This document shows, piece by piece, positions 831 through 10,833 of a stretch of 64,000 nucleotides of DNA (its first letter is position 1; each line of letters begins with the position of its first letter). The notes below the pieces were generated by a model that saw only the letters and a program-made list of their open reading frames with translations, was not told the DNA's origin and did no database searches. The stretch spans positions 1-64,000 of the forward strand of contig NZ_CAXQBR010000094.1 in the NCBI RefSeq assembly GCF_964222135.1, given 5' to 3'. Source of the DNA: Euzebya sp. (GTDB lineage Bacteria; Actinomycetota; Nitriliruptoria; Euzebyales; Euzebyaceae). A program made the position numbers and the translations under genes.

Positions 831-860
831 GCATTCACCTGCATTCTGGTGCATTCTGTA
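831..860. repeat. three GCATTC iterons at 10-bp spacing
   Basis: GCATTC starts at 831, 841 and 851, one helical turn apart, in the divergent promoter region between the excisionase-like gene and the Xre-like gene. The last copy, GCATTCTGTA (851-860), has an exact inverted match TACAGAATGC at 2735-2744, where the element ends. These are candidate operator or integrase arm-type sites. Confidence 0.45.
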
Positions 861-863
861 GAC

Positions 864-1403
864 ATGCCTGCCTTGAGTGCCCGTCAGAACCGCGCGGCCC
901 AGAGGCGGCAGGATCACGACCACGATCGGCTGCGGGCGCTCGTGCGCGAGACGCGGGAAACGCAGGGTCTGTCCATCGAACGCGCCGCCGCGATGGCTGG
1001 CGTCAGTCCCACGACGTGGGGCCGTTACGAGTCCGGCCACACCACGCCTCACGGGACCACGCTCGAGTCCTTCAGGCGCGCCCTGCAGTTGCCACGCCAT
1101 ATCTGGGAGGACCGCTACCAAGACCAGCAGGAACTCGAAGCTCAGGAACACGCCCGGATCGAGGCTCGAGTTGCGGAGCAGACTGTCGTGCTCCTCAGCC
1201 CGTGGTCGCCGCGGACTTGGGACGAGGAGCGCGAGCTGCTCACCCAGGTCTTCGCAGGTCGAGCTCGTGTCGTAGACAGCTATGGCGAGTTGATGCACGA
1301 ACCACTGCCAGGGGAGGACGAGGTGCGGGAGCTGCTGGGCCGGATGACCGCCAAAGATCGGCGTCGTGCCGTCGAGGTCCTCAAGGCCATGGCGGATGGC
1401 TAG
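864..1403 (+). CDS. Xre-family regulator of the integrated element
   Basis: The 179-residue protein carries an N-terminal Xre/HTH_3 domain at about residues 24-80 (LRALVRETRETQGLSIERAAAMAG, then PTTWGRYESGHTTPHGTTLESF). This is followed by a helical, charged C-terminal half without a recognised domain. Its gene ends with TAG overlapping the integrase ATG by eight bases, so it is probably translated with the integrase and controls element maintenance. I chose ATG 864; an upstream ATG at 849 would lie inside the GCATTC repeats. Prophage-type repressors have this size and position, but the target operators are inferred only from the adjacent repeats. Confidence 0.7.
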   Translation: MPALSARQNRAAQRRQDHDHDRLRALVRETRETQGLSIERAAAMAGVSPTTWGRYESGHTTPHGTTLESFRRALQLPRHIWEDRYQDQQELEAQEHARIEARVAEQTVVLLSPWSPRTWDEERELLTQVFAGRARVVDSYGELMHEPLPGEDEVRELLGRMTAKDRRRAVEVLKAMADG

Positions 1404-2571
1404 ATCGCGCCGCGGCGACGGCCCCCTGGGCGGGATCAGCAAGCGCGCCGACGGGCGGTGGGCCGTCACCTGGTATGACCATCGGGGCCGCCGGCGAGTC
1501 ACGACGCGCCGCACGCGAGATGAGGCGTATCAGCTGCTCCTCGATCGCCGCCACGAAGTCGGAATGCGGATCGACCGTGACCGCGATCCCCGCGTCCAAG
1601 AGGTCTTGGACGGGTGGTTCGCCGAGATGGAGCGGACAGGCAAGCCGGCTGCGTCCGCCCGCGCCAGCTACCGGGACCGGTGCAACCTGATCCCTCGGTG
1701 GTTCGTCGAGATGCGGGTCCGGGAGGTCGACCCCGTCGACGTCCGCCGGGCTCTTGACGAGATCGCCGCGACGCCGACCAAGTACGGCCGTCCGAGGAGC
1801 GTCCAGACCGTGAAGCAGGTCCGATCCCACCTGCAAGCCGCGTGGAGACACGCACGCGCCATGCGCGTCACGTCGGACGATCCCGTCGACCCCGCCGAGG
1901 TGGCCTCCGGTGGTGACAATCAGCGGCCTGCGCAGGTGGTCGATGCGCTCGAGCTTTCCGACGCCCGGGCGATCTTGAAGGTCCTGGCCGATGAGGACCA
2001 CCGGCTCTACTCGCTATTCCTGACGAGCATGGTTCACGGCATCAGACAGGGCGAGGGCGTGGGTGCCACGTGGCAACAGCTCAACGTCGAGGCCGGGACC
2101 TTGATGGTCGATCGGCAGATCACCCGCGACCCAGCGGGCAGGCGCCATCACAAGCCTCCGAAGGGCGGCCGATCGCGCACGATCACTATGGCCGAGGTCG
2201 TCGTCGAGGCGCTCAGCGCCTGGCGTGAACGATGGGCGGACGATCAGGGACGCGAGCCGCAGCCGGACGACCTGATCTGGCCGAGCGAGCTGCGGCACAC
2301 CCGCAACGGGCCCGTCGGCGGCGGTCCGCTGGGGAGGGCACATCTTTCCCGGCTCCTGGACCGGGTCGCGGGCCGTGCGGGCGTCGGGCATGTGCGCTGG
2401 CATGCGCTGCGTCACACCGCGGTGTCGCACGCGATCGACGAGGGGACTGAGCCGTCAGTCGTGCAAGACATGGTGGGTCACAGGACCGCGCAGATGACGG
2501 ATCGGTACACGACCGTCATGGACGGGGCCGGGCGGGATGCGGCGAAGCGTCTCGACGACCGATGGCGTTGA
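1396..2571 (+). CDS. int: tyrosine-type site-specific integrase
   Basis: This is a 391-residue phage-type integrase that joins and excises the element by tyrosine recombination. It has an N-terminal arm-binding segment (SKRADGRWAVTWYDHRG), a SAM-like core-binding domain, and a catalytic domain. The catalytic residues are R217 (in GIRQGEG), H336 and R339 (WHALRHT), H362 (MVGHRT) and nucleophile Y371 (DRYTT), with a basic segment KGGRSRT between them. The ATG at 1396 overlaps the end of the regulator gene; the ATG at 1366 is less likely. Repeats typical of arm-type sites and the element's attachment end follow directly downstream. Confidence 0.93.
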   Translation: MARSRRGDGPLGGISKRADGRWAVTWYDHRGRRRVTTRRTRDEAYQLLLDRRHEVGMRIDRDRDPRVQEVLDGWFAEMERTGKPAASARASYRDRCNLIPRWFVEMRVREVDPVDVRRALDEIAATPTKYGRPRSVQTVKQVRSHLQAAWRHARAMRVTSDDPVDPAEVASGGDNQRPAQVVDALELSDARAILKVLADEDHRLYSLFLTSMVHGIRQGEGVGATWQQLNVEAGTLMVDRQITRDPAGRRHHKPPKGGRSRTITMAEVVVEALSAWRERWADDQGREPQPDDLIWPSELRHTRNGPVGGGPLGRAHLSRLLDRVAGRAGVGHVRWHALRHTAVSHAIDEGTEPSVVQDMVGHRTAQMTDRYTTVMDGAGRDAAKRLDDRWR

Positions 2572-2886: not shown

Positions 2887-2952
2887 GTGAAGACGGGCGA
2901 GGAGATGACGGTCGGCCGAGCCGCCGAGGGCGCCGGAGGGTGTCGTGGGTAA
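2887..2952 (+). CDS. 21-codon leaderless leader ORF before radC
   Basis: A TACCGT hexamer at 2874-2879 is followed after seven bases by GTG 2887. This opens a 21-codon frame (VKTGEEMTVGR, AAEGAGGCRG) ending in TAA 2950-2952, just past the radC GTG at 2945. The spacing fits the leaderless starts seen elsewhere in the window, and the overlap would couple translation to radC. Alternatively the GTG is only a transcription start region with no translation. There is no sequence family to support it. Confidence 0.35.
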   Translation: MKTGEEMTVGRAAEGAGGCRG

Positions 2953-3631
2953 CACGATCGCCGCCCTGCCATCGAGGGCGCGACCACGCGAGCGGCTGGC
3001 CGTGGCCGGACGGGAGGCGTTGAGCGAAGCCGAGTTGCTCGCGCTCCAACTGCGCAGCGGAACACCAGGGAGCAGCGCGATGGCGCTCGCCGCGGACCTG
3101 CTCGCCGAGTTCGGCAGTCTGCGGCGGTTGAGCGAGGCCGGCGTCGAGGAGCTGGGTCGGGTCCCCGGTGTCGGAGCGGCCAAGGCTGCCGCGATCGTCG
3201 CGGCCTTCGAGCTGGGGCGTCGGGTGCCGCGTGAGGAGTCCGGCACGGTGCTGCGCCGTGCGTCCGACGTGGCTGAGCTGGCAGCGAACACGTTGGCCGG
3301 CTTGCGGCTCGAGCGCGCGGTCGTCTTCGTCTGCGACCGTCATGGACGGCTGCTCGCCGAGGTGCGGCTGTCGGACGGCACCGCGGACCGTGCGCTGGTC
3401 GATGTGCGCGAGGTGCTGCACGCCGTCCTCCGCCACGATGGTGCGACGTTCGCACTGGCGCACAACCACCCCTCCGGCGACCCGCAGCCGAGCCCGGCCG
3501 ACATCGAGGTCACCGCCACGGTCGCTGCCGGCGCCAAGGCGGTTGGCCTGCGGTTCATGGGCCACGTCGTGGTCGCCGGGGCCGACTGGAGCGAAGTACC
3601 GCTTAGCTCAGCCCGGCGAAGGCACGGTTGA
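2945..3631 (+). CDS. radC: RadC-family JAB/MPN domain protein
   Basis: The 228-residue protein matches full-length RadC. It has an N-terminal helical part starting LPSRARPRERLAVAGREALS, a helix-hairpin-helix (VPGVGAAKAAAI) near residue 75, and a C-terminal metalloprotease-like JAB domain. The HNHPSGD motif lies at residues 173-179, with H173, H175 and D179 as presumed zinc ligands. Its cellular role is unsettled, although the family name comes from DNA repair and relatives are common near mobile elements. GTG 2945 has a GGAGG site five bases upstream. The 3' end overlaps the convergent hsdS by 29 bases. Confidence 0.92.
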   Translation: MGNTIAALPSRARPRERLAVAGREALSEAELLALQLRSGTPGSSAMALAADLLAEFGSLRRLSEAGVEELGRVPGVGAAKAAAIVAAFELGRRVPREESGTVLRRASDVAELAANTLAGLRLERAVVFVCDRHGRLLAEVRLSDGTADRALVDVREVLHAVLRHDGATFALAHNHPSGDPQPSPADIEVTATVAAGAKAVGLRFMGHVVVAGADWSEVPLSSARRRHG

Positions 3632-4757
3632 GGGATGCGGGCATGACGGCCGCGAGAACGGCCTCCCGGGGCTGACGAGCTTCTTCCACGGAGCGAATGA
3701 CCTCCAGCGTCGTGGGGATTGAGCGATGCTCGGGCGGCGGGAGCCAGACAGGGGCGTTGAGGAACCGCTCGGCCGACACGCGTTCGCGACGGGCTCCCAC
3801 TCCTTTCGATGCATCGGACAAAGATGACCATAGCAATGGGCTTCGAAGGAGGGCCTGGATGTACGACAGGTCGACACCGGGCTTGAGCGTGAACGTCGGG
3901 AACTCGGTAGATGCCACTGCCCCGTCGAGATGCTCGGGAAGAACTGCCAAGGCACCTTCCCAGGCCTTGAGTCGGCTCATCACCACCTCACCTGCCCGGA
4001 CCCTATGGAGAACCTCGTACTTCGTGTCGCCCGGCAGAAGTGGGCCCCGGTCGATAATCCCGCGCCCGAAGCTCAACACCCCTACTTGCCTGAACTCCGG
4101 TTCGGATAGGGCGTCGATCCTCTCGATGTCCAACGAGAGCAAGTCGCCCATCCGAACGCGAGCCCAACCGTCGGCCTCCGCGGGATCGGGGGAAGGGTGT
4201 AGGAGGGAGCTCCTCAAGGCACCTGAGAGCAGCGTGCTTCGTTCTGTCAACTGCATCAAACGATTGACACGGTGGGCAACCTCATCAAGTTGGGCAGCGA
4301 TGCAGCGTTGTTCCTCGATGGGTGGCAACGGGATCTCAATGGCCTCGAAGCGTTCTCGCGCTAAGGTCCGGTTGCGGGTAACCGACCCCGGTGCGGCCTT
4401 CTGGATCTTCGGGAAGCCAGCGGGACTGAGGAAGTAGTAGCGAGCCCAGTTCGTGTCGATCAGGTCGGGGTCGCGGGCGGCGTAGCACAAGAAGCGGTTG
4501 GTTCCGACGGTGCCGCGTTCTTGTTCGGTCGCGTGGGCGATGGCCCCCTCCCAAGCTTGGATGTTGCTGAGGACCAGATCGCCGGGCATGACTGACGAGA
4601 AGCGGTAGTCCCCCAGATCCACCCCCAGCGTGGGTTGGCGGTGGAAGATGCCCTTCCCGAAGGAATAGACGCCGATCAGCCTGTACACCTCACCCGGTTC
4701 GATGGCAACAGGTCGGCGCTGAAGATCAAGGACGTCGCCAACCTTGACGCGCCTCAC
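3603..4757 (-). CDS. hsdS: type I restriction enzyme specificity subunit HsdS
   Basis: The 384-residue subunit would read the DNA target for the HsdM/HsdR complex. It has two target-recognition halves, each followed by a helical spacer (for example IPLPPIEEQRCIAAQLDEV). The halves look duplicated: SFGKGI and QAWEGAIA in the first match SFGRGI and KAWEGALA in the second. GTG 4757 overlaps the hsdM stop by four bases (GTGA), so the pair is translationally coupled. Base composition looks less GC-rich than the flanks, as is common for exchanged recognition domains. The 3' end overlaps radC on the other strand. Confidence 0.92.
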   Translation of the reverse strand: MRRVKVGDVLDLQRRPVAIEPGEVYRLIGVYSFGKGIFHRQPTLGVDLGDYRFSSVMPGDLVLSNIQAWEGAIAHATEQERGTVGTNRFLCYAARDPDLIDTNWARYYFLSPAGFPKIQKAAPGSVTRNRTLARERFEAIEIPLPPIEEQRCIAAQLDEVAHRVNRLMQLTERSTLLSGALRSSLLHPSPDPAEADGWARVRMGDLLSLDIERIDALSEPEFRQVGVLSFGRGIIDRGPLLPGDTKYEVLHRVRAGEVVMSRLKAWEGALAVLPEHLDGAVASTEFPTFTLKPGVDLSYIQALLRSPLLWSSLSDASKGVGARRERVSAERFLNAPVWLPPPEHRSIPTTLEVIRSVEEARQPREAVLAAVMPASLNRAFAGLS

Positions 4758-6247
4758 GCCGTGTCCCCGAACTCGGCGTCCAGCTCCTCCAATAGCGACA
4801 GGATCTCGCGCTCGGTCTCCAGCAGCTCGGCGATGAGCTCGCCCGGTGGCCGATGGGCCAGGTCGTCGGGACGATGGGGGTTCTTCAGGTCCAGGTTCCA
4901 GCCGGACTCGGCGATGGTCTCGGCATCGACGCGCCAAGCGCGTTCGGTCTCGGCTCGGTCCAGCCGCTCACGGCCGCCCCACCACTCGATGCAGTCGGCG
5001 AACTCCTCGAAGCGCATCGGGCGGGTCTTGGAGTACTTCTTGCGGTCCTCCGGCGTGGGGATCTCGTAGAACCAGACCTCCTTCGTCGGACCGGTCTTGT
5101 CGAAGAACAGCAGGTTCGAGGGGATGTCGGTGTACGGCGCGAACACGCCCGACCCCAGCCGGACGACGGTGTGCAGGTCACACGTCGTGAGCAGCCTCTC
5201 CTTGATCCTCGCTCCAGCGCCGTCGGCGAACAGCACGCCGTTGGGCACGACGATGCCGCAGCGACCTCCGTCGGCCAGCATCCGCTGCACGAGCTGGATG
5301 AACAGCCAGGCCGTCTCGGCGGTCTGCGTCCCGGCCGGGAAGTTGGACAGGATCGACTTCTCCTCCTCACCACCGAAGGGCGGGTTGGTCAGGATCACGT
5401 CCACGCGTTCCGCACGGGTGATCTCTGTCAGTGGCCGGGCCAGCGCGTTGCCGCGCACCAGGTTCGGCCGGGGAAGCCCGTGCAGCAGCAGGTTCATCAT
5501 CCCCAGCAAGTAGGGCAGCGGCTTCTTCTCGATCCCGCGCAGGTCGACTGCCAGCTGCTCGTGCTCAGCGACGGTCTCCAGCTTGGGCTGTAGGTGCTCC
5601 AACGTCTCGACCAGGAACCCGCCGGTCCCGCAGGCTGGGTCCAGCACGGTCTCGCCCAGCTGCGGGTCGACCATCTGCACCATGAACCGGATGGCGGGAC
5701 GCGGTGTGTAGAACTCGCCGGAGTCGCCAGCCGCGTCGCGCATCTCTCGCAACATGGACTCGTACAGCAGGGCCATGGTGTGGACGTCCTCGGAGGAGGT
5801 GAAGTCCACGTCGTTGACCTGCTCGATGACGTCGGACAGCAGGTAGCCGGAGACCATGCGGTTGTAGGTCTCCTTGAAGACCGTCGAGAGGATGTCCCGC
5901 GGATCGCGGTCGGTGTCGCCTGTCAGACCGCGCAGGTAGGGGAAGAGGTCGTCGTTGACGAACCGGAGCAGGTCATCACCTGTGCGGCCGTCGATGCGGT
6001 CGGCGGCCCAGTCGCGCCAGCGGTAGGGCGCCTCGATGGCGGGGCGGTAGTCGTCCTCGACGATCTCGCGCTCCATCTCGATCCCGTCGAAGGCCTTCAG
6101 GAACAGCAGCCAGGCCAGCTGCGGGATCCTGTCCAGATCGCCGTTGAGCCCTGCGTCCTTGCGCATGGTCTTGCGGGCCGAGTTGATCACCGACCGCAGC
6201 CTCGCCTGCGGCGTCGGCGGGGCCGCGCTGCTCTTCCTACGTGCCAT
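4754..6247 (-). CDS. hsdM: type I restriction enzyme methylase subunit HsdM
   Basis: The 497-residue N6-adenine methyltransferase has the HsdM N-terminal helical domain and then the methylase core. The AdoMet motif DPACGTGGF begins near residue 202, and the catalytic NPPF lies near residue 287 (VILTNPPFGGEEEKS). ATG 6247 (MARRKSS) is chosen because it lies at the end of abiEii, overlapping it by 11 bases, and gives a normal N-terminus; the open frame extends 35 codons further without homology. With hsdS it forms the modification unit that protects host DNA. Confidence 0.95.
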   Translation of the reverse strand: MARRKSSAAPPTPQARLRSVINSARKTMRKDAGLNGDLDRIPQLAWLLFLKAFDGIEMEREIVEDDYRPAIEAPYRWRDWAADRIDGRTGDDLLRFVNDDLFPYLRGLTGDTDRDPRDILSTVFKETYNRMVSGYLLSDVIEQVNDVDFTSSEDVHTMALLYESMLREMRDAAGDSGEFYTPRPAIRFMVQMVDPQLGETVLDPACGTGGFLVETLEHLQPKLETVAEHEQLAVDLRGIEKKPLPYLLGMMNLLLHGLPRPNLVRGNALARPLTEITRAERVDVILTNPPFGGEEEKSILSNFPAGTQTAETAWLFIQLVQRMLADGGRCGIVVPNGVLFADGAGARIKERLLTTCDLHTVVRLGSGVFAPYTDIPSNLLFFDKTGPTKEVWFYEIPTPEDRKKYSKTRPMRFEEFADCIEWWGGRERLDRAETERAWRVDAETIAESGWNLDLKNPHRPDDLAHRPPGELIAELLETEREILSLLEELDAEFGDTA

Positions 6248-7109
6248 GGGATCCTCGATCCGATTCATCGCCGAGCTCGCGCGCGGCGTCCCAGAACTGC
6301 TGAACGGTTGCGTGTGCGTCGGCGGCCGTGCGCGTGTGCAGACCCAGCTCAACGGCCATGGTCGTGAACGGTGCTGCCCACTCCTCCGCCATGGACGGCA
6401 GGGTGACCGGGAGATGCTGCTGCCGGTTGATGAACGTGTGCACCACCTCGTCGTGGAGCCGCCGGTCGGGTGCCAGCCCGTGCTCGATGAGCAGGACGAG
6501 GTCGACCAGGTCCTTCACCCTCGTGTTGGGCCGGTCGTCGTAGCGCCGGAGGTACGCGCTGAGCTTCTCAGCCCAGTGCGTCGCCAGATCGAGGACGGGG
6601 ATGTCCACGACCGGCAGGTCCGCGAAGTCCAGCATCTCGCCCAGCCGGACACGGTCCGCATCGGTGGCCGCGGCGGCACTGCGCACCACGTCCACGACGA
6701 ACCGCTCGAAGACCCGGCTGCCCAATCGAGCCTCCACGGACAGTCGGAGGACGATCCCTCGATCCGGCATGTCCGAGAGCTCCCGCCGTCCCGTGACGCG
6801 GAAGGAGAAGTGGTCGCCGAACGGGTCGGCCTCCAGATCCTCGAGCAACTGGTCGGCGGGGTCGGCAAGCGCACGTGCGGCCAGGTCGATGTCTCGCGTC
6901 GCCCGAGCCCGTTCGGGCATCCGGAACTGCAGCGCCGCTCCGCCCTTGAGCAGCCAGGCGCCGTGCGCTGATACCGCCAACCTCGCAAGGAACCGATCGA
7001 AGGCGACGGTCCGTCGGAGACGAGCCAGGTCGCGGTCCTGAGCGTCCGCGGCCTGTCGCATCCGGGCTTCGAGCGCCATCCGGAAGGCGTCGGGTTCGGT
7101 GTACCTCAT
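6237..7109 (-). CDS. abiEii: AbiEii-type nucleotidyltransferase toxin
   Basis: The 290-residue protein fits the AbiEii/AbiGii family, toxins of type IV toxin-antitoxin and phage-exclusion systems that use a DNA-polymerase-beta-like nucleotidyltransferase fold. The signature is clear: WLLKGGAALQFR with K55-G56-G57, then TRDIDLA with acidic residues D73 and D75, and a conserved C-terminal helix LATHWAEKLSAYLRR. It follows abiEi after 13 bases and overlaps the start of hsdM by 11 bases, so the toxin and methylase are translated from one message. Members nucleotidylate tRNA or other substrates; the target here is unknown. Confidence 0.9.
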   Translation of the reverse strand: MRYTEPDAFRMALEARMRQAADAQDRDLARLRRTVAFDRFLARLAVSAHGAWLLKGGAALQFRMPERARATRDIDLAARALADPADQLLEDLEADPFGDHFSFRVTGRRELSDMPDRGIVLRLSVEARLGSRVFERFVVDVVRSAAAATDADRVRLGEMLDFADLPVVDIPVLDLATHWAEKLSAYLRRYDDRPNTRVKDLVDLVLLIEHGLAPDRRLHDEVVHTFINRQQHLPVTLPSMAEEWAAPFTTMAVELGLHTRTAADAHATVQQFWDAARELGDESDRGSHGT

Positions 7110-7122
7110 GAGTCGGTGTGCG

Positions 7123-7716
7123 TCATGAGGACGTGCCGGCCAGAACGCGGTCCGCCCGTAGCCGCGCGTCGGGGCTCAGCTCGTGCATGCGTCGCCGGAT
7201 CAGACCAGCCGTCACCCCGCCCGTCGCGACCGCATCGTCGACGACGCTCGCGACCAGCTCCTCGTCGAAGTGGGACTCGATGACATCGAGCACGGTGCGG
7301 AGGACGGTCGTGATGGTGGCCCCTTCGAGCGTGGTGACGTCGCTGTCCGGGAGGACGCCCCGGTGCAGGACGACGACGGGATCGGACATCCGGAAGTCCG
7401 GTGGGACCGTCAGGTGCACCTTGGCGGGGTTGAGGAGACCCAGGCCGTACGCTGCGGCGGCGGAGTCGTGCGACACCACTGCCCGGTGCTTGGACCACAG
7501 CACCCACCGGACGAGCCCGTCGTTGGGTCCTGCCGGCCACTCCGGGATGCGGAAGATCCCTCGGTCGACGCGTGTCCAGTTGCCGTGGTCGACGTGGTAC
7601 TTCTGCGCCTGGTGGGAGTAGCCGATCTGGACGGCCTGGGCCGCCGTGAAGTACCCCGCCTGTTCGGCCGCGAGGGCGTAGAGGCGGTGTCGGAGCGCTT
7701 GTCGGTCCCCCGGCAT
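7123..7716 (-). CDS. abiEi: AbiEi-type antitoxin and autorepressor
   Basis: The 197-residue partner of the toxin has an N-terminal winged helix (LAAEQAGYFTAAQAVQIGYSH) and the conserved segment VDRGIFRIPEWP. It also has the C-terminal AbiEi domain (LTVPPDFRMSD... TTVLRTVLDVIESH). In studied systems AbiEi neutralises the toxin and represses its own promoter by binding inverted repeats. Here a TAGGAT box sits six bases upstream of ATG 7716, within one inverted repeat, with a second repeat 23 bp further upstream. That suits a leaderless, autorepressed message reading abiEi-abiEii-hsdM-hsdS. Confidence 0.88.
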   Translation of the reverse strand: MPGDRQALRHRLYALAAEQAGYFTAAQAVQIGYSHQAQKYHVDHGNWTRVDRGIFRIPEWPAGPNDGLVRWVLWSKHRAVVSHDSAAAAYGLGLLNPAKVHLTVPPDFRMSDPVVVLHRGVLPDSDVTTLEGATITTVLRTVLDVIESHFDEELVASVVDDAVATGGVTAGLIRRRMHELSPDARLRADRVLAGTSS

Positions 7717-7722
7717 CCGCGG

Positions 7723-7781
7723 ATCCTACACCGAATCTGTAGGTTGAATGGCCCGATAACTAAACCGAAACTTTAGTTTCG
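7723..7781 (-). promoter_or_regulatory. abiE promoter with two inverted repeats
   Basis: Two perfect inverted repeats lie between hsdR and abiEi. CCTACA-N7-TGTAGG spans 7725-7743, and CGAAACT-TT-AGTTTCG spans 7766-7781. The first overlaps the TAGGAT -10 box (7723-7728 on the minus strand). The area is strikingly AT-rich for this genome. Known AbiEi antitoxins bind two inverted repeats at their promoter, so this is the likely autorepression site. The second repeat could also terminate hsdR transcription. Confidence 0.6.
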
Positions 7782-7785
7782 TGCG

Positions 7786-10140
7786 CTACGCCGCGTAGAG
7801 CTGGTCGTGGAGCTCCGATATGGCTGAGCGGAGCGCATCAACGCCTCCGAACCGGTTGGCGAGTTCCACAGGCGATCCGAGGTCAGCCAACGGCGGTACG
7901 CGGAGGGCGGCGGGGGTCAGTTCGTCCGGCCCGTGTTCGGCGTACTTGTCCAGCAGGGCGTCGAGGACCATCCGCGCGTCGGCGCTGAACCGTTCGAAGA
8001 ACGCTGCCCGCTCGGCTCGCACGCGGCGGACCCGGTCGTGGCGCGACTCGAGCGGTTCGTTCCAGGCGAGGTGGACCAGCACGTCCAGTGGGTCCGCGTC
8101 GTGCAGCCCGGTCTGCTCTCTGGCCTCTGCGAGATCGATCCCCCGCTCGGCGAGCGCGTCGATGATCGTCCTCCGGGTTGCTCCTTCGCCCCATCTGGCG
8201 CGGAGCTCCGCGGCGGTGGGCGCGAGGTCGCGGATCGCGTCGACGAGGAAGGTCCGGTACTCGACCAGCTTCGGGCGTCGGGTGGAGGGGTCAAGCCTGA
8301 AGACACCCTCCGCGACGACCCAGACCGGCTCGTCATCGACGTAGTACTTCCGGACGTCGTCCTGGGTGTCCAGATCGCCCTCCTCGGTCTCGTGTGGACC
8401 GTCCTCTACGGGAGGTTCGTGCACCTCGTCGACTTGGTTGACGACCTGGCCGGTCTCGTCGATCTCCTCATCGGTCTCGACCAGCGGCGGTCCGTCGAAC
8501 TCGGGGTCCTCGAAGAGGCGAGTCGCACCGCAGTAGTCGATGATCTCGAACTGCCACTTGTCGGTGTCGGGGTCCAACCGGGTGCCCCGTCCGATGATCT
8601 GCTTGAACAGGGCGATCGACCCGATGGGGCGGAACAACACGATGTTGCGGACCGACGGGATGTCGACGCCGGTGGAGAGCAGTTGGGACGTCGTGGCGAT
8701 GGTCGGGGAGCGTCGTTCCGGGTCCCGGAACTCGTCGAGCAGTCGGCCCGCCTCGTACTCCGCGGAGACGATCCGGACGACGTAGTCGGGGTCGGCGGAC
8801 GTCAGGTCCGCGTTCGCGTTGTGCAACGCACGCCGCATGGCGTCTGCGTGATCGGAGTTGACGCAGAAGATGATGGTCTTCGCATGCCGGCCCGTGCGAC
8901 GGAGGTGTGCGGTCAGGTGGTTCGCGGCCGTCTCGGTGCGTGACAACAGGGCGACGACCCGCTCGAACTGCGCGGTCTCGTAGAGCCGGTCGGGGATCTC
9001 GTGGCCGAACAGGTCCAGCTCCCCCTCTTCGGGGGCGAACCCGAACGCATCGGCGCTCAGGACCACCCTGCGCACGGTGTAGGGCGCCAGGAACCCATCC
9101 TCGATGCCCTGGGCGAGGGAGTACTCGAAGATCGGGGGCCCGAAGTGGCGGTACGTGTCGGCGTCGGTGCTCACAACCGGCGTGGCCGTGAGCCCGATCT
9201 GCGTGGCCGGGCCGAAGTACTCGAGGATCTGGCGCCATGTCGAGCTGTCGGTCGAGCTGCCGCGATGGCACTCGTCGACGATGACCGCGTCGAAGTAGTC
9301 CGGTGGGTACTGCCTGAACCATGCGTCCTCGCCCACGCCGAGGTTCTGGTACAGCCCGAAGTAGATGTCCCGCCCGGTCTTCATCTCACCGGCGAACTTG
9401 TGGATGGCGTGCTCGCCGAAGACCGGGACGAACTCCCGCTGACGGGGCTGGTCGATCAAGATGTTCCGGTCCGCCAGGTAGAGGATGCGCGGCGGTCGGT
9501 CCGCGACCCACCCGGTGCGCTGCAGCTTCCAGGCGATCTGCATCGCCAGGAAGGACTTGCCGGTGCCCGTGGCCATGACGACGAGCAGACGCTCCTCACC
9601 AGCCAGGACCCGCTCGACGGTGCGGTTGATGGCGGTTCGCTGGTAGTAGCGCGGAGCCTTCACACGGCCATCGGAGAGACGGAGGTCACGGTTGAACGGC
9701 TCGGTGTACGCCCGACGGGTGACGGGGGTGAGTCCCTTGCCGGACGTGAAGTGCTCCCATGCCTCCTCTGGGGTGGGGAAGGGGGCGTTGAACTCCTCGG
9801 TGCCGCCCGCGATGTCGACCCGGACGGTCACGGTGCCGTTGGATGCGTAGGCGAGTGGGAGGTCCAGAAGTCGCGCGTAGACCTTGGCCTGGCCGATGCC
9901 GTCGGCGGTGCTGCGCGCGCTGCGCTTGGCTTCGACGACGGCGACGGGGACGCCAGCGACGAGGAGGACGTAGTCCGCTCGCAAGGGCCGGTCACGTCGA
10001 TGCCGGCCGCCCAACGGCAGGATCCGCCCGTCCGTGATGCGGAACTCCTCGACGATGCCGTCGTCGTCCCAGCCGGCCGCGCGGAGGGCGGGGAGGATCA
10101 GCTCCCGACAGGTCTCGCTCTCCGTTGGGCCCACCCGCAC
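7786..10140 (-). CDS. hsdR: type I restriction enzyme endonuclease subunit HsdR
   Basis: The 784-residue motor and nuclease subunit is of EcoEI type. It has a PD-(D/E)xK nuclease (D56, then E70-A-K72), a superfamily-2 translocase with Walker A ATGTGKS (K195), DECH box at 289-292, TATP, and motif VI (IIGRGTRLD). An EcoEI_R-type C-terminal domain follows a strongly acidic linker. Translation probably begins at GTG 10140, six bases after a TACGAT -10 box, so the transcript is likely leaderless. It is separately promoted from abiE-hsdM-hsdS, allowing methylase to be made before or without the nuclease. Confidence 0.95.
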   Translation of the reverse strand: MRVGPTESETCRELILPALRAAGWDDDGIVEEFRITDGRILPLGGRHRRDRPLRADYVLLVAGVPVAVVEAKRSARSTADGIGQAKVYARLLDLPLAYASNGTVTVRVDIAGGTEEFNAPFPTPEEAWEHFTSGKGLTPVTRRAYTEPFNRDLRLSDGRVKAPRYYQRTAINRTVERVLAGEERLLVVMATGTGKSFLAMQIAWKLQRTGWVADRPPRILYLADRNILIDQPRQREFVPVFGEHAIHKFAGEMKTGRDIYFGLYQNLGVGEDAWFRQYPPDYFDAVIVDECHRGSSTDSSTWRQILEYFGPATQIGLTATPVVSTDADTYRHFGPPIFEYSLAQGIEDGFLAPYTVRRVVLSADAFGFAPEEGELDLFGHEIPDRLYETAQFERVVALLSRTETAANHLTAHLRRTGRHAKTIIFCVNSDHADAMRRALHNANADLTSADPDYVVRIVSAEYEAGRLLDEFRDPERRSPTIATTSQLLSTGVDIPSVRNIVLFRPIGSIALFKQIIGRGTRLDPDTDKWQFEIIDYCGATRLFEDPEFDGPPLVETDEEIDETGQVVNQVDEVHEPPVEDGPHETEEGDLDTQDDVRKYYVDDEPVWVVAEGVFRLDPSTRRPKLVEYRTFLVDAIRDLAPTAAELRARWGEGATRRTIIDALAERGIDLAEAREQTGLHDADPLDVLVHLAWNEPLESRHDRVRRVRAERAAFFERFSADARMVLDALLDKYAEHGPDELTPAALRVPPLADLGSPVELANRFGGVDALRSAISELHDQLYAA

Positions 10141-10185
10141 CGGTGAATCGTAGCCCAGGGTGCCGGCCGCCGAGGTCGACGACCG

Positions 10186-10833
10186 CTACGGCGCGAGCCG
10201 CTCGATGGTCCAGCCGTCCCCGTCGCGGGTGTAGCGGAAGCGGTCGTGGAGGCGGTCCGACCGGCCCTGCCACACCTCCACCGCGTCAGGGGTGATCGCG
10301 TAGCCGCCCCAGGACTCCGGGCGGGGGATGACCTCGACCCCCTCGAAGCGCCGGGCGGTCTCCTCGACGAGGAGCTCGAGGGCGCGGCGGTCGGGGAGGG
10401 GTCGGGACTGCGGTGAGGCGTGCGCGCCGATCTGGGCGCCCCGAGGACGGGTGGCGAAGTAGGCGTCGGACTCAGCCGTCGTGGCCCGCTCGACGGTCCC
10501 CCGCACCTCCACCTGCCGCTGCGGCGTCGCCCAGCGGAACAGGGCGGCGACGTGGGGGTTCGCCTCGATGTGGCGGGCCTTCCGCGAGTCGTAGTTGGTG
10601 AAGAACAGCAGCCGCCCGTCGACCACGCGGCGGAGCAGCACGGTCCGCAGGGCCGGTCTGCCGTCGGCGTCGACCGTCGCGAGCCCCATGGCCGTCGGCT
10701 CGACCAGCTGGTCGGAGGCGGCGGCGGTGTCGAGCCAGCGCTGCAGCTGGGCGACCGGGTCGGGGTCGAGGTCCTTGCGGCGCAGCGGCTGCCGGCCGTA
10801 GTCCATGCGGGCGGTGGTGGGTTCGTCTGCCAT
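10186..10833 (-). CDS. pdxH: pyridoxamine 5'-phosphate oxidase
   Basis: The 215-residue flavoprotein oxidises pyridoxine or pyridoxamine 5'-phosphate to pyridoxal 5'-phosphate with FMN and oxygen. Length and motifs are standard: MGLATVDADGRPALRTVLLR at the FMN site, FTNYDSRKARHIEANPHVALF-like core, then SPQSRPLPDR and the C-terminal RLHDRFRY that defines PdxH rather than general split-barrel proteins. It starts at ATG 10833, only ten bases from the ATG at 10843 on the other strand, so it shares a tight divergent promoter with the threonine-synthase-like gene, itself a PLP enzyme. Confidence 0.93.
   Translation of the reverse strand: MADEPTTARMDYGRQPLRRKDLDPDPVAQLQRWLDTAAASDQLVEPTAMGLATVDADGRPALRTVLLRRVVDGRLLFFTNYDSRKARHIEANPHVAALFRWATPQRQVEVRGTVERATTAESDAYFATRPRGAQIGAHASPQSRPLPDRRALELLVEETARRFEGVEVIPRPESWGGYAITPDAVEVWQGRSDRLHDRFRYTRDGDGWTIERLAP

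What the first reader, a model, noticed from the sequence alone, without database searches (positions are those of the whole stretch)
4754..10140. AbiE toxin-antitoxin pair built into a type I restriction locus
abiEi and abiEii lie between hsdR and hsdM on the same strand. abiEii overlaps hsdM by 11 bases, and hsdM overlaps hsdS by four, so toxin, antitoxin, methylase and specificity subunit are probably one message, while hsdR has its own promoter. The antitoxin, as autorepressor, would then also set methylase levels. Loss or silencing of the locus would release the toxin, making the restriction system addictive or providing abortive infection as a second line.
Basis: partly seen in the sequence, partly recalled or inferred. 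Interest (0 to 1): 0.65.

Follow-up and report, generated by a model that had tools for sequence, protein, structure and literature searches.

The report
Restriction locus with built-in toxin-antitoxin
In this actinobacterium and dozens of relatives, a toxin-antitoxin pair sits at one fixed place inside a DNA-cutting anti-phage system, apparently so that the antitoxin's promoter also drives the system's protective methylase; a second, overlooked gene (radC) travels with it.

Summary
It is not a local accident. The same order occurs in 42 distinct complete loci (46 in which abiEi precedes hsdM), almost all Actinomycetota. The spacing is constant: a 49–113 bp gap only before abiEi, then genes that abut or overlap through hsdS.

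That gap carries the antitoxin's likely operator, CTTTAGTTT-N18–22-AAACTAAAG. Its 7-mer core is about 1000-fold enriched there and absent upstream of hsdR and inside abiE. A leaderless -10 box lies before abiEi in 44/44 loci, before hsdR in 21/42, before abiEii, hsdM or hsdS in none. In surveys not using AbiE as query, 9/9 HsdM of this clade had abiEi; 0/10 examined sister loci did.

Two additions: radC, convergent with hsdS, is a sixth member (38/46 loci; none in 12 AbiE-negative loci). And abiEii is repeatedly dead while abiEi stays intact, so antitoxin control of hsdMS seems to outlast the toxin.

Addiction and abortive infection remain inference. Kind: new variant of a type I RM system with an embedded toxin-antitoxin pair (precedent: DarTG2/RptR, PMC12255303).

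The parts
7786..10140 (-). hsdR, EcoAI-type restriction subunit (GTG start)
   Evidence: NF046051 831 bits (cut-off 550), ResIII, EcoEI_R_C
10141..10152 (-). candidate leaderless promoter of hsdR: TACGAT, 6 nt, then the GTG start (approximate coordinates)
   Evidence: sequence; same layout in 21 of 42 related loci against 8% in shuffles
7717..7785 (-). only intergenic gap between hsdR and hsdS; candidate AbiEi operator and promoter region
   Evidence: gap of 49-113 bp in all 44 loci measured; convergent half-sites in 29/44 loci against a shuffled mean of 0.34; the only two AACTAAA/TTTAGTT 7-mers in the 64-kb window lie here
7766..7780 (-). operator half-site GAAACTAAAGTTTCG
7756..7766 (-). operator half-site in inverse orientation, GGTTTAGTTAT
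7737..7745 (-). downstream half-site AACCTACAG, near the expected -35 position
7723..7728 (-). -10 box TAGGAT, 6 nt before the abiEi start (leaderless)
   Evidence: TANNNT at this place in 44/44 loci against 20% in shuffles
7123..7716 (-). abiEi, antitoxin / winged-helix repressor (AbiEi_4)
   Evidence: Pfam 1.5e-7, PADLOC 3.6e-65; AlphaFold model pLDDT 93.6 matches AbiEi 6y8q, E 4e-8
6237..7109 (-). abiEii, nucleotidyltransferase toxin
   Evidence: Pfam 3.7e-25; profile matches MenT3 Rv1045 (6y5u) E 2.8e-27; catalytic G57, D73, D75, D200 invariant in 36 embedded copies
4754..6247 (-). hsdM, type I methyltransferase; 11-bp overlap with abiEii; GAGGA ribosome-binding site
   Evidence: N6_Mtase 1e-64
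3603..4757 (-). hsdS, specificity subunit; 4-bp overlap with hsdM
   Evidence: PADLOC Specificity_I 4.6e-87, Methylase_S
2945..3631 (+). radC-like JAMM/JAB-domain gene, convergent with hsdS (3' overlap of 29 bp); conserved partner of the locus
   Evidence: RadC 2.1e-27; convergent beside hsdS in 38 of 46 loci, absent from 12 AbiE-negative hsd loci and from the free-standing abiE loci

Best explanation
A heritable six-gene defence unit: an EcoAI-type type I restriction-modification system whose modification genes have been placed behind an AbiE toxin-antitoxin pair. Shown by sequence: one dominant candidate promoter and operator before abiEi; abiEi, abiEii, hsdM and hsdS abut or overlap, hence are probably one leaderless message with coupled translation; hsdR has a separate candidate promoter; radC is convergent and co-inherited. 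Inferred: AbiEi binds the inverted repeat and represses the promoter, so it sets HsdM/HsdS level as well as AbiEii level. When the locus enters a new cell without AbiEi, the promoter is open and antitoxin, toxin, methylase and specificity subunit are made in a burst before repression settles, which would favour methylation before cutting (the job C proteins do in type II systems). AbiEii, a MenT3-like nucleotidyltransferase, is held in check by AbiEi and would stop translation by extending tRNA ends if AbiEi falls, as when the locus is lost or host expression is shut off by a phage. RadC's part is unknown; a metal-dependent peptidase or nuclease acting on AbiEi or HsdR is the guess I would test first.
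For: Gene order and spacing conserved in 42 distinct complete loci: abiEi/abiEii -17 to +13 in 44/44, abiEii/hsdM within 20 bp in 38/44, hsdM/hsdS within 20 bp in 42/45, but 49-113 bp before abiEi in 44/44. Operator 7-mer 11.8 per kb in that gap against 0.009 in hsdR, 0 in the 300 bp before hsdR, 0 in abiE and 0.03 in hsdMS. Convergent half-sites, spacer mostly 18-22 bp, in 29/44 loci, shuffled mean 0.34, maximum 2. -10 box before abiEi 44/44, hsdR 21/42, abiEii 0/42, hsdM 0/44, hsdS 0/43. Surveys anchored on HsdM/HsdR: 9/9 clade loci have abiEi, 0/10 examined sister loci do. Trees of HsdM, HsdR, AbiEi, AbiEii and RadC are congruent (Mantel 0.68-0.91, all above 999 permutations). AbiEi dN/dS 0.05-0.15 in cleanly aligned pairs, as low as HsdM. 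Toxin-dead loci keep intact AbiEi, and the operator where checked. AbiEi is an autorepressor binding inverted repeats in S. agalactiae (PMC3985639).
Against: No expression, binding or phage data. A promoter inside abiEii, or read-through from hsdR, is not excluded. In the AbiEi tree embedded and free-standing copies are interleaved, so abiE is not permanently tied to hsd. In L119 abiEi itself has a stop codon while hsdM is intact, so AbiEi control is not indispensable. Congruent trees partly reflect shared host phylogeny. The loci were found with AbiEi as query; only the smaller surveys (9 clade loci) are free of that bias.
Confidence: 0.62

Rival explanations
1. AbiEi is chiefly the regulator of hsdMS and the toxin is an expendable passenger: the pair was recruited for its autorepressed promoter, and AbiEii adds little.
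For: AbiEii dead with AbiEi intact in L077, L184, L100, L127, L129; operator conserved in L077 and L184; AbiEii evolves faster than AbiEi in most near pairs (dN/dS mostly 0.15-0.35 against 0.05-0.11) and is less conserved (51% against 62% mean column identity).
Against: Most embedded loci keep an intact AbiEii with invariant catalytic residues under purifying selection. Loss of the toxin before the antitoxin is also what any toxin-antitoxin decay must look like.
Confidence: 0.2
2. Selfish stabiliser: abiE is an addiction module that happened to insert at the hsdR/hsdM junction once and is kept because losing the locus frees the toxin; regulation of hsdM is a by-product.
For: AbiE stabilises plasmids (PMC3985639); abiE also occurs free-standing and on plasmids; HsdM with AbiE form nearly one clade; the locus is absent from three congeners.
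Against: Loci with a dead toxin persist with AbiEi under constraint. Relics L115 and L120 (hsdR fragments beside abiEi) carry broken abiEii, so decay of the locus does not leave a working toxin behind as addiction would suggest.
Confidence: 0.13
3. Ordinary defence-island neighbours: two independent systems side by side, with hsdM driven by its own promoter.
For: Defence genes cluster; the AbiE family is abundant (PMC12259885).
Against: Fixed insertion point, base-level overlaps, no -10 box just before hsdM in 44 loci, one shared operator, co-inherited radC. Free-standing abiE loci show no common neighbour.
Confidence: 0.05

Closest known systems
RRDM island of E. coli EPEC: RptR repressor, type I RM, DarTG2, M48 metallopeptidase (PMC12255303)
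   Same: Toxin-antitoxin pair inside a type I RM locus; a small repressor with palindromic operators controls hsdM; a metallopeptidase gene at the edge (RadC here also has a metal-dependent JAMM domain)
   Different: There the pair (DarTG2) sits between hsdS and hsdR and a separate protein (RptR) is the regulator; here the pair is AbiE, between hsdR and hsdM, and the antitoxin itself is the likely regulator; host group mainly Actinomycetota instead of Gammaproteobacteria
AbiE type IV toxin-antitoxin system (Streptococcus agalactiae, PMC3985639) and MenAT3 (Rv1044-Rv1045)
   Same: AbiEi winged-helix antitoxin plus AbiEii nucleotidyltransferase with motifs I-IV, adjacent or overlapping pair, inverted repeats at the promoter
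   Different: Operon continues into hsdM and hsdS; different operator sequence (CTTTAGTTT-N18-22-AAACTAAAG instead of TGTTGCTTTTA-N27-TAAAAGCAACA)
EcoAI-type (family IB) type I restriction-modification
   Same: HsdR, HsdM, HsdS of that family, order R-M-S
   Different: In the AbiE-negative sister loci examined hsdR and hsdM are mostly under 40 bp apart and without radC; here abiEi-abiEii separate them
PrrC anticodon nuclease inside an hsd locus (from own knowledge)
   Same: Translation-blocking toxin kept within a type I hsd operon as back-up
   Different: PrrC is held by the Hsd complex itself and has no antitoxin/repressor pair

Membership tests
AbiE type IV toxin-antitoxin | AbiEii/DUF1814 motifs hGG-x15-DhD, motif III lysine, +DxxD | tested here: met
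   K55 G56 G57-x15-D73-I-D75, K182, K199 D200 L V D203; G56, G57, D73, D75, D200, D203 invariant in 36 sequences, K182 nearly so
AbiE type IV toxin-antitoxin | AbiEi with winged-helix domain and C-terminal antitoxin domain | tested here: met
   AlphaFold model pLDDT 93.6; best PDB match AbiEi 6y8q, TM 0.68, then Rv2827c 1zel
AbiE type IV toxin-antitoxin | inverted repeats at the abiEi promoter | tested here: met
   convergent half-sites in 29/44 loci, null mean 0.34; in the window the half-sites are weaker, spacer 11 or 22
AbiE type IV toxin-antitoxin | toxicity of AbiEii and neutralisation by AbiEi | not testable with these tools
   needs expression assay
EcoAI-type type I RM | HsdR of the EcoAI/FtnUII family | tested here: met
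   NF046051 831 bits, cut-off 550
EcoAI-type type I RM | HsdM N6-adenine methyltransferase and two-domain HsdS | tested here: met
   N6_Mtase 1e-64, HsdM_N, Specificity_I 4.6e-87 in 2 stretches
EcoAI-type type I RM | methylation and cleavage activity | not testable with these tools
   needs methylome and restriction assay
RRDM / RptR-controlled RM islands | DarTG2 between hsdS and hsdR, with RptR at the front | tested here: not met
   the embedded pair is AbiE at hsdR/hsdM; upstream of hsdR lies pdxH

The most novel reading that the evidence does not exclude
A distinct, widespread actinobacterial defence system of six co-inherited genes (hsdR, abiEi, abiEii, hsdM, hsdS, radC) in which the antitoxin serves as the RM system's transcription regulator, so that modification, toxin release and (through RadC) perhaps restriction are wired into one circuit.
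Probability: 0.45. Interest if true: 0.78.

Novelty: new variant of a known kind. Interest (0 to 1): 0.62.

Why it matters
How type I RM systems avoid killing a new host, and how they are regulated, is poorly known; here an autorepressing antitoxin appears to have taken over the modification promoter in a clade spread across many actinobacterial genera. That would give a natural, testable link between an abortive-infection toxin and RM expression, and it points to radC, a gene of disputed function, as part of a defence unit. No paper describing this arrangement was found in the open-access library searched, which is not proof that none exists.

Tried and rejected
Chance or defence-island adjacency: rejected by the fixed position and overlaps. 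hsdR as part of AbiEi control: rejected as far as sequence goes, no operator half-site in the 300 bp before hsdR in the embedded loci. The 'terminator' called at 7766-7781 is the operator palindrome. The generic sigma-70 scan found no promoter; a search for the actinobacterial leaderless TANNNT layout was informative instead. Search of viral contigs with AbiEii found nothing. att-like repeats of 13 bp or more between the integrase side and the pdxH side: none. Common neighbours of free-standing abiE: none beyond the pair itself. Some start codons in the mechanical tables are wrong (outliers such as -313, -77, -1098, and dN/dS values far out of line, as for L123, L125, L184 hsdM and L119 abiEi); these were ignored. 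G176, G193, G215, G227, G246, G338 (weaker HsdM hits) were not opened; G179's hsdR lies near a contig end and its hsdM on another contig; the second G270 locus (L153) showed no hsdM in the stretch taken.
Full report
CHECK. abiEii ends at 6237 and hsdM starts at 6247 (11 bp shared); hsdM ends at 4754 and hsdS starts at 4757 (4 bp shared). The gap abiEi-abiEii is 13 bp. hsdR stops 69 bp before abiEi.

RELATIVES. A search of 396 genomes of the phylum with AbiEii and regional fetches gave the same order in three distant genomes (G040, G041, G062). A profile scan of 84,980 species genomes with AbiEi gave 80 loci (the best of 152 confirmed). With the window, G040 and G062 there are 46 distinct loci in which abiEi precedes hsdM and 42 in which hsdR, abiEi, abiEii and hsdM are all present in that order (L038 and L055 are the same locus). 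They include Acidimicrobiia, Nocardioides, Terrabacter, Janibacter, Propionibacteriaceae, Dietzia, Cellulosimicrobium, Agrococcus, Actinomadura, Micromonospora, Salinispora, Amycolatopsis and Streptomyces, with one Planctomycetota locus (L082) and one Chloroflexota contig that ends after abiEi (L096).

SPACING. abiEi/abiEii -17 to +13 bp (44/44 within 20 bp, mode -4); abiEii/hsdM within 20 bp in 38/44, the exceptions being broken abiEii genes or mis-set starts; hsdM/hsdS within 20 bp in 42/45, mode -4; hsdR/abiEi 49-113 bp in 44/44, median 78. There is thus one place for a regulatory region in the whole downstream block.

OPERATOR AND PROMOTERS. That place holds AAACTAAAG half-sites in inverted order, mostly CTTTAGTTT-N18..22-AAACTAAAG, at nearly constant distance from abiEi. 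The 7-mer core occurs 41 times in 3,480 bp of gaps, once in 107 kb of hsdR, never in 13 kb upstream of hsdR, never in 64 kb of abiE, 4 times in 128 kb of hsdMS. The free-standing abiE loci have it too (9.7 per kb), so it belongs to AbiE. In the window the only two copies of the 7-mer in 64 kb lie in the gap; the window's downstream half-site is divergent (AACCTACAG). A TANNNT box ending mostly 6 nt before the start codon, as in leaderless actinobacterial promoters (own knowledge), precedes abiEi in 44/44 loci, hsdR in 21/42 and none of the abiEii, hsdM or hsdS genes. AbiEi is known to repress its own promoter through inverted repeats in S. agalactiae (PMC3985639). That AbiEi therefore sets HsdM/HsdS level is inference, but well grounded.

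UNBIASED COUNTS. Because one search used AbiEi as query, I also anchored on HsdR and HsdM. Of 396 phylum genomes, four carry HsdM of this clade (E below 1e-280) and all four have abiE; in a class-wide search with HsdM only the window and G040 matched. In 296 genomes of the genus of G062 (Streptomyces, judging by loci that coincide with named Streptomyces records), six HsdM of the clade all have abiEi, five with abiEii, while the two more distant ones have hsdR and hsdM about 27 bp apart. Together 9/9 clade loci with abiEi (G062 counted once), against 0 of 10 sister loci with hsdR and hsdM both in view (eight, two). The FastTree HsdM tree puts the AbiE-bearing ones on one side of a branch (support 86); a second method leaves the Planctomycetota row uncertain. 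One main acquisition followed by spread as a unit is the simplest reading.

CO-INHERITANCE. Distances in the HsdM tree correlate with those of HsdR (0.91), AbiEi (0.80), AbiEii (0.68) and RadC (0.86), all beyond 999 permutations. Part of this is host phylogeny. In the AbiEi tree, free-standing copies are interleaved with embedded ones (24 changes, not below shuffles), so abiE leaves or joins often, or hsd is lost around it. L115 and L120 show the latter: hsdR remnants beside abiEi, with abiEii broken as well.

TOXIN LOSS. abiEii is deleted in L077, L184 and L119, and disrupted in L100, L127 and L129 (single frameshifts could be sequencing errors). AbiEi is intact in all but L119, and the operator is still there in L077 and L184 (one mismatch in a half-site of L184). 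AbiEi is as constrained as HsdM (dN/dS 0.05-0.15), AbiEii mostly less so. So the regulator half of the pair seems worth more to the locus than the toxin half, although toxin-first decay is also expected for any toxin-antitoxin pair.

TOXIN AND ANTITOXIN IDENTITY. The AbiEii profile matches MenT3/Rv1045 structures at E 2.8e-27; MenT3 adds nucleotides to tRNA 3' ends (PMC11541572, abstract). T71, which I align with the phosphorylated Ser78 of MenT3, is invariant (phosphorylation from PMC11375011; the residue pairing is my reading of the alignment). AbiEi folds like the S. agalactiae antitoxin 6y8q.

RADC. The gene at 2945-3631, first taken for an unrelated neighbour, is a RadC-family JAMM/JAB protein found convergent to hsdS in 38 of 46 loci, 34 of them with 3' ends within about 33 bp; none has an internal stop; 35 of 38 have the full HxHx7SxxD motif. 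It is missing from the 12 AbiE-negative hsd loci and from free-standing abiE loci. It is more divergent from the Pfam RadC profile than the usual RadC of the class (E 1.9e-27 against about 1e-36 to 1e-42) and is the only RadC found in the window's assembly. Its role is unknown. The EPEC island RRDM also has a metallopeptidase gene next to an RM system with an embedded toxin-antitoxin pair, a parallel that may or may not be meaningful.

CONTEXT. The locus lies between an integrase/HTH pair (849-2571) and pdxH (10186-10833). Congeners keep pdxH, threonine synthase and phosphomannomutase but show no match to this block in the stretches compared, so it is probably an accessory island.

VERDICT. 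A real, conserved, apparently undescribed arrangement; a variant of the known theme of toxin-antitoxin pairs inside type I RM loci; the regulatory claim is likely, the addiction and abortive-infection claims are open.

Noticed in passing
window 2945-3631: radC-like gene convergent with hsdS is a conserved sixth member of the locus and the only RadC found in this assembly.
   Followed up: yes
window 849-2571: HTH regulator and tyrosine integrase beside the locus; no tRNA and no att-like repeat found, so island ends are unknown.
   Followed up: partly
L064 3311-4342; L114 3244-4380: AbiEi-like gene followed by a protein that looks like a Fic-domain protein (by eye) instead of AbiEii, suggesting the same antitoxin/repressor type paired with other toxins.
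   Followed up: no
L115, L120: Relics: last 26 residues of HsdR, or an internally deleted hsdR, still upstream of abiEi, with abiEii broken too.
   Followed up: partly
L094, L104, L110, L111: 1.3-1.8 kb of extra sequence between hsdS and radC; content not identified.
   Followed up: no
G000:C19:83275-83667 (L002, L050): A second, shorter AbiEii-family match elsewhere in the same genome (32.8 bits, frame of 170 aa).
   Followed up: no
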